From the NCBI GenBank assembly GCA_036583965.1, contig JAZBQD010000026.1:1798001-1862000 (forward strand): a stretch of 64,000 nucleotides of DNA, read 5' to 3'. Position numbers and translations under genes: made by a program. Position 1 is the first letter of the stretch. Every line of letters starts with the position of its first letter. Below, in pieces: positions 13,455 through 53,273 of this stretch. Below the pieces are notes generated by a model, which was not told the DNA's origin, did no database searches, and worked only from the letters and a program-made list of their open reading frames with translations. The stretch is from Prunella strophiata. Taxonomy: Eukaryota > Chordata > Aves > Passeriformes > Prunellidae.

Positions 13455-13685
13455 TAGAGCACATTGGAGCAGAACTACTACTGGACCAGCAGACACCAGG
13501 CTTTGACTAACTCTAAACGAGTGCCTGAAGTGAGATCCTGACATGCACTGCTCAAGAAAAATCCAACTTCTACTGCCTGAACAGTTATGGTTAACTACGT
13601 ACTCAGCTCTGCTGGAAGACCACGAGATTTCAAACCACATTCTCAAAGTAAAGAACGGGGCTGGCAATACATAAAGATCTGTGAG

Positions 13686-13995
13686 AAAGGAAGCACTGGA
13701 ACTAGCAGCAAGGTGGGGTTGCCTGCATGGGCAGCCCTTCATTTGAATGCAAATGTAATTTTGGGGCAGGCAGTTATCTGTGACATCAGGCAGGACCTTA
13801 GTAAACTGTTACCACCAGCACCTGGTAAAACCATTGTTAATCATGTGTAGTAAAGGGACATCAGGGCTAGCAGGAGTCATTTATAGAGCCAGGCTGGGCT
13901 AGAAAAGAGAGAAAGAAAGAGGAGGGGAAGGGAGATCAAACAAACCCTGCGAGGAGCAGGATGTCCCAGCAAGACAAAGGCAGGCTGTGAGCATC
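13686..13995 (+). promoter_or_regulatory. CDX4: CDX4 copy 1 proximal promoter and 5' leader
   Basis: About 140 bp (13686-13828) align with the region just upstream of copy 2 (36112-36245), which marks this as the duplicated proximal promoter. Visible sites are a perfect octamer ATGCAAAT at 13747-13754, a CRE-like TGACATCA with one mismatch at 13781-13788, an E-box CACCTG at 13819-13824 that is shared with copy 2, and TTTATAG at 13880-13886. The last could serve as a TATA box and also matches the CDX binding consensus, which would allow autoregulation. If it is the TATA box, transcription would start near 13910, giving a leader of about 85 nt. The start site is inferred, not seen. Confidence 0.6.
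13961..13990 (+). other. Upstream ORF in CDX4 copy 1 leader, 9 codons plus stop
   Basis: An ATG with A at -3 opens a nine-codon frame (MSQQDKGRL) that stops five bases before the main start codon. The same upstream ATG exists in copy 2, also exactly 35 nt before its start, inside the shared context CGAGGAGCARGATGT. The reading frames then differ in length. The conserved position suggests a real leader feature that tunes translation, but use of this ATG is not shown. Confidence 0.5.
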
Positions 13996-14443
13996 ATGTA
14001 CGTGAGCTATCTGTTGGATAAAGACAGCAGCATGTATCCGGGATCCGCAAGGTGCACCAGCAACAACCTGCCCGTGCAGAACTTCGTGTCTGCTCCAGCC
14101 TACTCTGACTACATGGGATACCACCCTGTGCCAGCCCTGGACACCCACGGGCAGCCAGCACCAGCCTGGGGCTCCCACTACGGCCCCCAGCGCGAGGACT
14201 GGAGCGCCTACGGCCCAGGCCCTTCCAGCGCCGTGCCCGCTGCCCACATCAATGGCTCATCCCCTGGCCAGGGCTCCTACAGCTCTGCTGAGTACAGCTC
14301 CCTGCACCCCGCTGCTGCTGCTGCTGCTGCTGCTGCAGGGTTACCTCCTGTAGATACAATCAATGCCCAGCAAATCTCTCCCAACAGCCAAAGGCACAGC
14401 TCTTATGAGTGGATGAGGAAAACGGTGCAATCCACTTCCACAG
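13996..14443 (+). CDS. CDX4: CDX4 copy 1, exon 1: N-terminal transactivation region
   Basis: Encodes residues 1-149 plus one base of codon 150. The start is ATG 13996, because it gives MYVSYLLDKDSSMYP, the caudal-family N-terminal signature; the GTG reading nine bases earlier is not a start. The exon contains a run of nine alanines (eight GCT codons and one GCA) and the caudal hexapeptide YEWM at residues 137-140, which in this family contacts PBX-type cofactors. It ends in a phase-1 donor (CAG|GTAGGA). CDX proteins are nuclear transcription factors of the ParaHox class that drive posterior Hox expression, axial elongation and blood formation. From 14057 to 14430 this exon is almost identical to copy 2, with one substitution and two extra alanine codons, whereas the first 20 codons and the last few differ. 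The start motif looks closer to CDX1/CDX2, but the gene tail is CDX4-class. Confidence 0.93.
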
Positions 14444-19550: not shown

Positions 19551-19844
19551 TCTAATGCTAATTTATTTTGCTTTGTAAACAAGTTGTGAGGTCCGATGGT
19601 GGAGGGTTTTTTTTTCCTTTCCTGGCCTACATTGTCTGAGGTTTTGAGGCCTATCTGTCATATTGAGGCAACAGACCCTTTTAACACTTCACTTTGCTTT
19701 GATATGCACTCTTGTCTCTTCCTTCTCCCTCTTTTCTTCAGGAGTTATATTGCCGGAAAGGGTGATGATTTTCACAGCAAATAAAGAGGCCTTCTCCCAG
19801 CTTTATTGTCTTCAGAAGAAATACTCTGTGAATTTTATGACCAA
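19551..19844 (+). promoter_or_regulatory. Duplicated intron 1 element A (copy 1)
   Basis: Bases 19622-19844 (223 bp) are identical without a mismatch to 39987-40209 in copy 2; similarity continues at a lower level back to about 19551. The block holds a TCF/LEF-type CTTTGAT at 19697-19703, a CDX-type TTTATTG at 19802-19808 and AATAAA/TTTATT at 19780-19785. This combination suits a Wnt- and CDX-responsive intronic enhancer. It also contains a long pyrimidine tract ending in CAG at 19741, which resembles a splice acceptor, and an open frame shared by both copies. An enhancer is my preferred reading; a cassette exon is the alternative. The identity itself is directly visible. Confidence 0.6.
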
Positions 19845-21281: not shown

Positions 21282-21405
21282 GTGCCTTCTGAAAGAGAAT
21301 AGAGGTCAAGATAAGATCACCTTGTTGCTCTTTTGTGTACTCCATCTTAACAACACAAAGGACACTAAGGAAACATGTTAAACATTTTGTTCCCTAGAAT
21401 GACCC
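21282..21405 (+). promoter_or_regulatory. Duplicated intron 1 element B (copy 1)
   Basis: Aligns with 40714-40855 in copy 2 with many substitutions and small indels. Shared landmarks are GATAAGATC (21310-21318), a nearby TTTGTGT motif and CATCTTAACA. The GATA-type site and the HMG-like TTTGTGT are the best kept parts. Preservation after an old duplication, when the surrounding intron has lost similarity, suggests a regulatory role. It was not homogenised like element A. Confidence 0.45.
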
Positions 21406-24018: not shown

Positions 24019-24164
24019 GTAAAACAAGAACGAGAGAGAAGTACCGAGTGGTTTACACAGATCATCAGAGATTAGAATTAGAGAAGGAGTTTCATTACAA
24101 CAGATACATTACAATCAGGAGGAAGTCTGAACTTGCTGCAAACCTAAGACTTTCCGAGAGACAG
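24019..24164 (+). CDS. CDX4: CDX4 copy 1, exon 2: first part of homeodomain
   Basis: Starts after CAAAACAG, completing glycine 150, and ends at ERQ|GTAGAG in phase 0, the standard caudal intron position between homeodomain residues 44 and 45. It encodes residues 150-198 and carries the conserved caudal stretch [19 protein letters not shown]. The homeodomain spans residues 155-214. Against copy 2 there are four amino-acid differences (R for K at homeodomain position 1, Y for C at 22, A for V at 36, R for G at 39) and about 21 base differences in 146. Arginine at homeodomain position 39, codon AGA, sits in the turn between helices 2 and 3, where copy 2 and mammalian CDX proteins have glycine. 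Confidence 0.93.
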
Positions 24165-27350: not shown

Positions 27351-27605
27351 GTGAAAATCTGGTTCCAGAACCGCAGAGCCAAAGAGAGGAAACTAATGAA
27401 GAAGAAAATGACTCACTTTGATGGCAGCAGCCTGGGCTCTCTGCAGAGTGACTCTGGCTCCGTGAGCCCGATGCCAGTCCCCGAGGCACAGACTCACTCG
27501 GAAATGCCCGGCTCGCTGTTCCCAGCGCCGCCGCCCCCGGCCGCGCTGCCCTTGGGCGCCTTGCAGCACGGGGGGACCCTGCAGCAGGTGGTGGCCTCGC
27601 AGTGA
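27351..27605 (+). CDS. CDX4: CDX4 copy 1, exon 3: homeodomain helix 3 and C-terminus
   Basis: Starts VKIWFQNRRAKERK, homeodomain recognition helix 3 with W48, Q50 and N51 intact, then a basic KKK run. It encodes residues 199-282 and ends at TGA 27603-27605. The part after the homeodomain (FDGS...QSDSGS..SP) is shared with copy 2 and mammalian CDX4, and the final LQQVVASQ parallels IHQVIVSE of copy 2. In between lies a proline- and alanine-rich GC-rich segment, about 16 residues longer than in copy 2. The total of 282 codons is close to human CDX4 (284). The intact reading frame, splice sites and helix 3 indicate a functional gene rather than a pseudogene. Confidence 0.93.
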   Translation: MKIWFQNRRAKERKLMKKKMTHFDGSSLGSLQSDSGSVSPMPVPEAQTHSEMPGSLFPAPPPPAALPLGALQHGGTLQQVVASQ

Positions 27606-36391: not shown

Positions 36392-36830
36392 ATGTACGTG
36401 AGCTCGCTCTTGGAGAAGGAGCCCAGCATGTACCCAGGATCTGCCAGGGCCAGCAACAACCTGCCCGTGCAGAACTTCGTGTCTGCTCCAGCCTACTCTG
36501 ACTACATGGGATACCACCCTGTGCCAGCCCTGGACACCCACGGGCAGCCAGCACCAGCCTGGGGCTCCCACTACGGCCCCCAGCGCGAGGACTGGAGCGC
36601 CTACGGCCCAGGCCCTTCCAGCGCCGTGCCCGCTGCCCACATCAATGGCTCGTCCCCTGGCCAGGGCTCCTACAGCTCTGCTGAGTACAGCTCCCTGCAC
36701 CCCGCTGCTGCTGCTGCTGCTGCAGGGTTACCTCCTGTAGATACAATCAATGCCCAGCAAATCTCTCCCAACAGCCAAAGGCACAGCTCTTATGAGTGGA
36801 TGAGGAAAACGGTGCAAACCAACACTGCTG
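36392..36830 (+). CDS. CDX4: CDX4 copy 2, exon 1: N-terminal transactivation region
   Basis: Encodes residues 1-146 plus one base of codon 147. The start at ATG 36392 gives MYVSSLLEKEPSMYPGS, resembling the mammalian CDX4 start with its LLEKE motif. It carries seven alanines, YEWM at residues 134-137 and a phase-1 donor (GCTG|GTGAGT). From 36450 to 36817 it matches copy 1 with one silent substitution (serine TCG versus TCA, at 36652) and two fewer alanine codons. Sequence on both sides, within the same exon, is clearly diverged. Which gene donated the shared sequence cannot be told without an outgroup. Confidence 0.94.
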
Positions 36831-39932: not shown

Positions 39933-40209
39933 GCTTTAATGCTAATTTATTTTTCTTTGTAAATTAGTTGTGACATCTATTTTCCACTGGCCTACATTGT
40001 CTGAGGTTTTGAGGCCTATCTGTCATATTGAGGCAACAGACCCTTTTAACACTTCACTTTGCTTTGATATGCACTCTTGTCTCTTCCTTCTCCCTCTTTT
40101 CTTCAGGAGTTATATTGCCGGAAAGGGTGATGATTTTCACAGCAAATAAAGAGGCCTTCTCCCAGCTTTATTGTCTTCAGAAGAAATACTCTGTGAATTT
40201 TATGACCAA
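39933..40209 (+). promoter_or_regulatory. Duplicated intron 1 element A (copy 2)
   Basis: Bases 39987-40209 are identical to 19622-19844 of copy 1 over 223 bp. Upstream, 39933-39986 aligns imperfectly. The TCF/LEF-type CTTTGAT (40062-40068) and CDX-type TTTATTG (40167-40173) are in the same places. The acceptor-like pyrimidine tract ends in CAG at 40106. Similarity stops abruptly after 40209. It lies 3.1 kb after exon 1 here, against 5.1 kb in copy 1. Confidence 0.6.
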
Positions 40210-40713: not shown

Positions 40714-40855
40714 GTGTTTCTGAATGTGAAAGGGGTTCTTGATAAGATCTCCTTGTCGCTCCTTTGTGTGGCGTGTGCTTCATCTTAACACCTCAATGGA
40801 TTTTAGGGAACCACTTTAAAGGAGTCTTTGTCCTACAGTTTGTCCCAGAAAACTC
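40714..40855 (+). promoter_or_regulatory. Duplicated intron 1 element B (copy 2)
   Basis: Counterpart of 21282-21405, with GATAAGATC at 40741-40749, TTTGTGT, and CATCTTAACA. It lies about 0.5 kb after element A, against 1.4 kb in copy 1. Divergence is moderate. It is probably an old regulatory element kept in both copies. Confidence 0.45.
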
Positions 40856-41779: not shown

Positions 41780-41925
41780 GTAAAACAAGAACAAAGGAAA
41801 AGTACCGGGTTGTTTACACAGATCACCAGAGGCTGGAATTAGAGAAGGAATTTCACTGCAACAGATACATTACAATCAGGAGGAAGTCAGAACTGGCAGT
41901 AAACCTGGGACTCTCCGAAAGACAG
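41780..41925 (+). CDS. CDX4: CDX4 copy 2, exon 2: first part of homeodomain
   Basis: Encodes residues 147-195, same length (146 nt) and phases as copy 1. The homeodomain spans residues 152-211. It reads [20 protein letters not shown] then HCNRYITI, with cysteine at homeodomain position 22 and VNLGL at 36-40; that combination matches mammalian CDX4 (which has ITIQ instead of ITIR) rather than CDX1 or CDX2, where position 22 is tyrosine. Splice sites are canonical, ending at ACAG|GTACAG. Confidence 0.95.
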
Positions 41926-44405: not shown

Positions 44406-44612
44406 GTGAAAATCTGGTTCCAGAATCGCCGAGCAAAAGAGAGGAAAATGATCAAGAAGAAAATCTCGCAGTTTGATGGCAGCGGGGGCTCAGCTCAGAG
44501 CGACTCTGGTTCACTCAGTCCAAATGAACTGTCAAATTCTCTGTTCCCACCACCACATGGAATAAATGGATTACAGCCTAATGACATTCATCAAGTCATA
44601 GTTTCAGAATGA
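44406..44612 (+). CDS. CDX4: CDX4 copy 2, exon 3: homeodomain helix 3 and C-terminus
   Basis: Encodes residues 196-263 and stops at TGA 44610-44612. Helix 3 (VKIWFQNRRAKERK) is complete. The following MIKKKISQF and the final residues QVIVSE match mammalian CDX4 closely, so I take this copy as the direct counterpart of mammalian CDX4. It also lies next to CHIC1, as in mammals. The tail lacks the proline-alanine segment of copy 1. The total is 263 codons, about 20 fewer than human CDX4. Confidence 0.95.
   Translation: MKIWFQNRRAKERKMIKKKISQFDGSGGSAQSDSGSLSPNELSNSLFPPPHGINGLQPNDIHQVIVSE

Positions 44613-52343: not shown

Positions 52344-53273
<930 letters not shown>

What the first reader, a model, noticed from the sequence alone, without database searches (positions are those of the whole stretch)
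14057..14430. Exon 1 homogenised between paralogs: a sharp gene-conversion tract
14057-14430 and 36450-36817 differ by one silent base (14259 A versus 36652 G) and two alanine codons over 368 aligned bases. The first 20 codons of the same exon carry about 14 differences plus an indel, and exon 2 is about 14% different. Such a step inside one exon cannot come from uniform divergence. The tract is GC-rich, as expected of GC-biased conversion. It keeps the transactivation region shared while homeodomain and tail diverge.
Basis: partly seen in the sequence, partly recalled or inferred. Interest (0 to 1): 0.88.

Follow-up and report, generated by a model that had tools for sequence, protein, structure and literature searches.

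The report
Twin CDX4 genes sharing one exon
Birds carry two neighbouring, anciently duplicated body-axis genes (CDX4 type) whose DNA-binding halves have grown apart while the middle of their first exon keeps being copied from one gene to the other, so that each bird species examined has its own matched version.

Summary
In this songbird-like window two tandem CDX4-type genes share 14057-14430 / 36450-36817 with one silent difference and a two-alanine indel. Synonymous divergence is 0.011 in this core, against 1.36 in codons 1-20 and 0.95 in exon 2. In nine of nine bird species for which I identified both copies among the listed hits, the exon 1 cores are 96-100% identical within a species; between eight of them the same gene's core is only 49-83% identical. 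Exon 1 rejects copy A as one clade (p-AU 1.3e-7). Exons 2-3 recover it and reject within-species pairing in all five species tested. This is recurrent interlocus gene conversion, seen from quail to songbirds, with signs of it in early squamates, caecilians and perhaps turtles; frogs and present lizards show none recent.
Further: an unreported 223-nt identical tract in intron 1; copy A is an overlooked Cdx gene, probably older than crown tetrapods; Xenopus "cdx4" belongs to copy A, mammalian CDX4 to copy B. GC bias is undecided and a selective reason was not shown.

The parts
13996..14443 (+). Copy A exon 1 (paralog-specific codons 1-20, converted core, paralog-specific last 4-5 codons)
   Evidence: Caudal_act PF04731
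14057..14430 (+). Converted core in copy A exon 1
   Evidence: 1 substitution and a 6-nt indel against 36450-36817
19622..19844 (+). Second identical tract, intron 1 of copy A, 223 nt exact match to 39987-40209
   Evidence: only two matches reported in the genome
24019..24164 (+). Copy A exon 2 (homeodomain part, marker LRLSERQ)
27351..27605 (+). Copy A exon 3 (end of homeodomain, tail ..LQQVVASQ, stop)
36392..36830 (+). Copy B exon 1 (copy B groups with mammalian CDX4 on exons 2-3)
36450..36817 (+). Converted core in copy B exon 1
39987..40209 (+). Second identical tract, intron 1 of copy B
41780..41925 (+). Copy B exon 2 (homeodomain part, marker LGLSERQ)
44406..44612 (+). Copy B exon 3 (tail ..HQVIVSE, stop)
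13673..13875 (+). Collinear upstream block of copy A, about 67-90% alike in 60-base steps to upstream of copy B (36098 on): duplicated but not homogenised control
21287..21382 (+). Collinear intron 1 block, 71% alike to 40718-40820: unconverted control

Best explanation
Two direct-orientation CDX4-type genes about 22 kb apart arose by a duplication that probably precedes crown tetrapods (copy B groups with mammalian CDX4; the six mammalian sequences put in the tree are all copy B). In birds the two are repeatedly homogenised by non-reciprocal transfer (interlocus gene conversion), mostly within codons about 25-137 of exon 1, with, in this species, a second identical tract in intron 1. The step behind this is inferred: the core is the longest uninterrupted homologous block (about 370 bp), so it stays above the length and identity that recombination needs, and each conversion renews the similarity for the next one. 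Exons 2 and 3 are short (146 bp, and about 80-110 bp of homology) and bounded by diverged introns; with the paralog-specific ends of exon 1 they lie beyond the tract and diverge. The result is an activation region that changes fast between species but is shared by both genes within a species, joined to paralog-specific N-termini, homeodomains and tails.
For: Silent-site step inside one exon. Within-species core identity in birds: window 115/115, Cyrtonyx 114/114, Manacus 108/110, Sylvia 105/106, Formicarius 102/106, Calyptomena 102/104, Pitta 98/99, Grallaria 99/101, Melopsittacus 98/101; between the first eight species the A-A core is 49-83%. The exon 1 tree pairs the two copies in 8 of 8 of these species, and in 7 of 8 in the careful tree, where Formicarius is unresolved. 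Exon 1 rejects A as one clade: lnL 662 lower, p-AU 1.3e-7. Exons 2-3 hold A as one clade (SH-aLRT 95; 99/93) and reject within-species pairing in all five pairs tested (window, Cyrtonyx, Manacus, Pitta, Rhinatrema; p 2.5e-3 or less). Over eight birds, 95 A/B substitutions in residues 1-155 fall 49 in 1-24, 5 in 25-137, 33 in 138-149 and 8 in 150-155. Noncoding control blocks of the same duplication are 71-82% alike. Birds (100/99) and squamates (98/90) each form an exon 1 clade holding both A and B.
Against: DNA was available only for the window; other species rest on predicted proteins named by cluster representative. No conversion event was observed; direction and tract length are unknown. 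The reported mean avian non-crossover tract is only about 32 bp (PMC12047795, passages), so a 370-bp core needs many events or rarer long ones. Frogs (39/110, 43/110, 54/110) and lizards (65/112, 65/101, 50/81) show no recent homogenisation, so the proposed length rule alone does not suffice. Where the core evolves slowly it is alike between species too (Calidris A and Morus B 107/112) and says little; the window core is also at zero distance from Sylvietta B. In one exon 1 tree Rhineura B strayed to the amphibians and Rhinatrema did not pair with itself. The 223-nt intron tract could also be extreme conservation.
Confidence: 0.95

Rival explanations
1. Purifying selection on the activation region keeps both copies alike without any exchange.
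For: The region is a named domain (Caudal_act PF04731), and some motifs in it recur in all tetrapod groups aligned.
Against: Silent sites are also nearly identical (dS 0.011). The region differs strongly between species (49-83% among eight birds) while near-identical within them.
Confidence: 0.01
2. Assembly or annotation artefact: collapsed or polished repeats, or one exon 1 joined to both exon 2s by gene predictors.
For: Many bird entries are marked partial, some from short contigs. Some species entries are duplicates or mispredictions of one copy (Merops, Nipponia, Pavo).
Against: The window copies differ inside the tract by a base and a 6-nt indel and lie 22 kb apart in a stretch without N. 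Each of the nine bird pairs carries different N-terminal residues in its two copies. The tract ends in similar places in independent species. Equal longest-contig lengths put both copies on one contig in six of seven other main pairs.
Confidence: 0.03
3. Recent independent re-duplication: the pair is young in each lineage, and exons 2-3 of one copy evolved fast.
For: Within-species clustering of exon 1 alone looks like young duplication.
Against: Exons 2-3 place sauropsid and amphibian A in one clade (99/93). dS in exon 2 is 0.95, and most intron and flank sequence finds no match between the copies.
Confidence: 0.01
4. Conversion persists because birds lack PRDM9 and recombination stays at promoter-like sites, making exon 1 a lasting hotspot.
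For: PMC5519329 and PMC12047795 (passages): PRDM9 absent in birds; recombination enriched at CpG islands. Exon 1 is presumably next to the promoter, and nine of nine bird pairs convert.
Against: PMC5519329 reports PRDM9 loss in Xenopus and two salamanders (extent in amphibians unclear), yet three frog pairs show no sharing; turtles have PRDM9, yet turtle A and B cores of two species are 107/112 alike, though turtle cores are slow (B to B 103/112). CpG observed/expected in the tract is only 0.37-0.41. The intron tract is not near a promoter.
Confidence: 0.2

Closest known systems
engrailed / invected of hexapods (Peel et al. 2006; not held; known here from passages of PMC3199776)
   Same: Linked homeobox paralogs for which gene conversion has been described
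   Different: Described in those passages as a convergently transcribed pair; here a direct-orientation pair in tetrapods. Which part converts in that pair I did not see
Dlxa/Dlxb of the annelid Capitella teleta (PMC3199776, passages)
   Same: Partial gene conversion inside a linked homeobox pair, found with a GENECONV test
   Different: One species, a 150-bp fragment in the homeobox and adjoining intron, inverted pair; here the homeodomain escapes and exon 1 converts in many species
BMP8A/B, DDX19A/B, TUBG1/2 of mammals (PMC2720389, abstract and outline)
   Same: Two paralogs with concerted evolution of specific segments for over 100 million years
   Different: Not transcription factors (recalled); here the converted part is an activation region and the diverged part the DNA-binding half, in birds and probably other tetrapods
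CDX4 in the three-gene account of Cdx (PMC4522105, PMC2701559, passages)
   Same: Copy B is this gene; an ORF resembling CHIC1 follows it (name and synteny recalled)
   Different: Those papers count three Cdx genes in vertebrates such as chicken and Xenopus; this bird has at least four Cdx homeobox loci, and Xenopus cdx4 groups with copy A

Membership tests
Interlocus gene conversion / concerted evolution | Higher identity between paralogs within a species than between orthologs | tested here: met
   96-100% within, 49-83% between, eight birds
Interlocus gene conversion / concerted evolution | Tract with sharp edges, silent sites included | tested here: met
   window DNA only
Interlocus gene conversion / concerted evolution | Conflicting trees for converted and unconverted parts | tested here: met
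Interlocus gene conversion / concerted evolution | Direct observation of transfer or A/B-shared polymorphism | not testable with these tools
   no reads or population data held
GC-biased gene conversion | Tract richer in GC than comparable unconverted sequence | tested here: inconclusive
   core GC3 0.68-0.69 exceeds exon 2 (0.43-0.51) and B tail (0.29) but not A tail (0.88); GARP share high in birds but higher in mammals
CDX4 subfamily (copy B) | Groups with mammalian CDX4 on exons 2-3 | tested here: met
   28-row clade 99/95
CDX4 subfamily (copy A) | CDX4 type rather than CDX1 or CDX2 | tested here: inconclusive
   Caudal_act and homeodomain; separate loci in this genome carry homeodomains read as CDX1 and CDX2 types; tandem with copy B; no tree with CDX1 and CDX2 was built
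PRDM9-independent promoter hotspot | Elevated recombination at CDX4 exon 1 | not testable with these tools
   no recombination map held

The most novel reading that the evidence does not exclude
A ParaHox locus in which two genes have shared one recombining activation module for much of tetrapod history: the activation region evolves fast as a single unit passed between the genes, while the DNA-binding halves specialise. The same old duplication hides an extra Cdx gene, so Xenopus cdx4 and mammalian CDX4 are paralogs rather than orthologs. An intronic element in the pair is kept identical by the same exchange.
Probability: 0.6. Interest if true: 0.85.

Novelty: new variant of a known kind. Interest (0 to 1): 0.72.

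Why it matters
Gene conversion in homeobox pairs is known from invertebrates (engrailed/invected; annelid Dlx, where it lies in the homeobox: PMC3199776, passages). Here one exon of a vertebrate developmental regulator is homogenised again and again across birds while its DNA-binding part escapes. That gives a natural experiment on why conversion persists or stops: birds convert, lizards seem to have stopped, frogs show none. It also means that trees of exon 1, or of whole proteins, can mislead on orthology. The tree of exons 2-3 indicates that the frog gene called cdx4 is not the ortholog of mammalian CDX4. That would help explain the 'functional orthology' puzzle noted in PMC2701559 (passages) and would change the usual count of three Cdx genes.

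Tried and rejected
GC-biased conversion from base composition: mixed, left undecided. PRDM9 loss as the sole cause: frogs do not fit, and turtles may not (with PMC5519329). The intron tract as a proven enhancer: motif counts are weak (three TTTATK and one Ets-like site, each count reached in about 5% of random 231-base pieces of the window; TCF-like in 25%; motifs recalled), and no other species' DNA was available. An amphibian-only second duplication: only weakly rejected (p-AU 0.039), so the pre-tetrapod age is likely, not certain. A third copy of exon 1 or of the intron tract in the genome: none reported. Whether Xenopus also has copy B: none among the listed hits, not decided. Papers: in five searches (1, 0, 15, 1 and 12 papers) no listed title or abstract start describes a tandem CDX4 pair or CDX4 gene conversion; most of those papers I did not open, and the library lacks most subscription journals.

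Full report
What is there. The window is part of a 1.05-Gb genome in 838 contigs; its nearest protein relatives are songbird sequences. It holds two three-exon genes in the same orientation. Copy A has exons 13996-14443, 24019-24164 and 27351-27605 (282 aa). Copy B has exons 36392-36830, 41780-41925 and 44406-44612 (263 aa) (exon 3 ends). Both carry the Caudal activation region and a homeodomain. An ORF containing about 53103-53273 looks like the start of CHIC1, the usual neighbour of CDX4 (name and synteny recalled). The same genome has two further Cdx-like homeobox loci, on contigs C264 and C227, that read as CDX1 and CDX2 types (the naming uses recalled sequence features). So this bird has at least four Cdx homeobox loci, whereas PMC4522105 and PMC2701559 (passages only) count three Cdx genes in vertebrates such as chicken and Xenopus.

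The observation. 14057-14430 against 36450-36817 shows one substitution and a 6-nt indel. Synonymous divergence is 0.011 in the core (1 difference in 87.7 sites), 1.36 in codons 1-20, 0.95 in exon 2 and 2.0 in exon 3; four-fold sites differ at 1 of 67 in the core and 21 of 36 elsewhere, p 2.5e-11; a 202-nt run was never reached in 100,000 shuffles. Noncoding blocks of the same duplication are 71-82% alike. A second tract was not in the finding: 19622-19844 equals 39987-40209 over 223 nt in intron 1, next to a 78% alike block on one side and poorly alignable sequence on the other. Searches of the whole genome reported each tract only twice.

Three protein searches listed the best 120 of 2300, 2818 and 6448 matches, together 159 distinct proteins. 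I aligned 100 rows: the two window proteins, 97 whole database proteins and one part of a predicted fused protein. Trees used 94 of 100 rows (six judged mispredicted were dropped) and 84 of 100 (16 dropped: those six and ten more that were incomplete, long-branched or mammalian). On exons 2-3 the 44 copy-A rows form one clade (support 95), and holding the two copies of one species together is rejected in the five pairs tested: window (p 4e-91, an extreme value I would not read literally), Cyrtonyx (4e-4), Manacus (1e-4), Pitta (1e-3) and the caecilian Rhinatrema (2.5e-3). On the exon 1 core, holding copy A together is rejected (lnL 662 lower, p-AU 1.3e-7). The eight bird species with both copies in the tree (window, Cyrtonyx, Manacus, Sylvia, Formicarius, Calyptomena, Pitta, Grallaria) pair within species in 8 of 8 cases and in 7 of 8 in a careful tree, where Formicarius is unresolved. 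The window pair is identical but also at zero distance from Sylvietta B, a close songbird. Cores are 96-100% identical within these species and 49-83% between them. A ninth species, Melopsittacus, has 98/101; its copy A row was left out of the trees because its homeodomain is mispredicted. Other bird species with two entries (Merops, Nipponia, Pavo) list one copy twice and were not counted. Over the eight, 95 A/B substitutions in residues 1-155 fall 49 in 1-24, 5 in 25-137, 33 in 138-149 and 8 in 150-155; gap differences, mostly single, also occur at 54-56, 79-81 and 105-123. So the shared stretch has similar borders throughout.

How far it reaches. In a careful exon 1 tree (84 of 104 rows, 20 dropped by id to lighten it), birds (100/99) and squamates (98/90) each form a clade holding both A and B. 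Turtle rows of both kinds lie together but unresolved. Caecilian A and B group (97/95), and Rhinatrema pairs with itself (95/99); in the quick tree it did not, and Rhineura B fell among amphibians. This suggests separate homogenisation in several lineages. Turtle A (Trachemys) and B (Macrochelys) cores are 107/112 alike, but these are two species and B against B is 103/112, so turtles are weak evidence. Against a simple rule: Rhineura 65/112, Eublepharis 65/101 and Lerista 50/81 among lizards, and the frogs Pelodytes 39/110, Rhinophrynus 43/110 and Ascaphus 54/110, show no recent sharing.

Age and a hidden paralog. On exons 2-3 (82 of 104 rows, 22 birds thinned out) copy A is a 40-row clade (99/93) of frogs, salamanders, caecilians and sauropsids. 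Mammalian CDX4 and sauropsid copy B form a 28-row clade (99/95). The join of that clade with amphibian B and lungfish is weak (87/42). Xenopus laevis and X. tropicalis 'Cdx4' (P0143, P0149) sit inside copy A; forcing them to join amniote CDX4 is rejected (p 4e-4), while an amphibian-only duplication is rejected only weakly (p 0.039). The duplication is therefore probably older than crown tetrapods, and frog cdx4 is probably not the ortholog of mammalian CDX4. [quoted passage not shown] In a tandem pair, neighbouring genes could not tell the two copies apart (inference).

Mechanism. Shown: sharing limited to a core, renewed in several bird lineages, with both ends of exon 1 and the homeodomain exempt. 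Inferred: the core persists as a substrate because it is the longest block of homology, and each conversion renews it. Promoter-directed recombination in birds, which lack PRDM9, may add to this (PMC5519329 and PMC12047795, passages), but frogs do not fit, and CpG observed/expected is only about 0.4 in the tract. GC bias is undecided: core GC3 is above that of exon 2 and the B tail but below the A tail, and bird cores are richer in G/A/R/P (0.42) than those of turtles, squamates and frogs (0.25-0.30) but poorer than single-copy mammals (0.51). Any advantage of a shared activation region is untested.

Limits. DNA of other vertebrates was not available, so the multi-species evidence is protein-level, from a database clustered at 90% identity whose species names are those of representatives. 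Pairs counted are only those I recognised among the listed hits; 62 of 159 listed proteins were never aligned (16 of these were added). The finding may be described outside the held library.

Noticed in passing
19622-19844 and 39987-40209: 223-nt exactly identical intron 1 tract between the two genes, next to a 78% alike block on one side and poorly alignable sequence on the other; possible regulatory element kept alike by conversion.
   Followed up: partly
P0143, P0149 against P0136 (proteins): Xenopus 'cdx4' groups with copy A and mammalian CDX4 with copy B: hidden paralogy in a developmental model gene.
   Followed up: partly
53103-53273: ORF stretch resembling CHIC1 exon 1 (name recalled) in a GC-rich (61-62%) stretch at 52-54 kb.
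   Followed up: no
27440-27605: Tail of copy A is very GC-rich (GC3 0.88) while the tail of copy B is AT-rich (GC3 0.29), though they lie about 17 kb apart.
   Followed up: no
P0001 (Melospiza melodia): Database protein of 363 aa fuses copy A homeodomain exons to a complete copy B, a likely gene-prediction error caused by the tandem pair.
   Followed up: no
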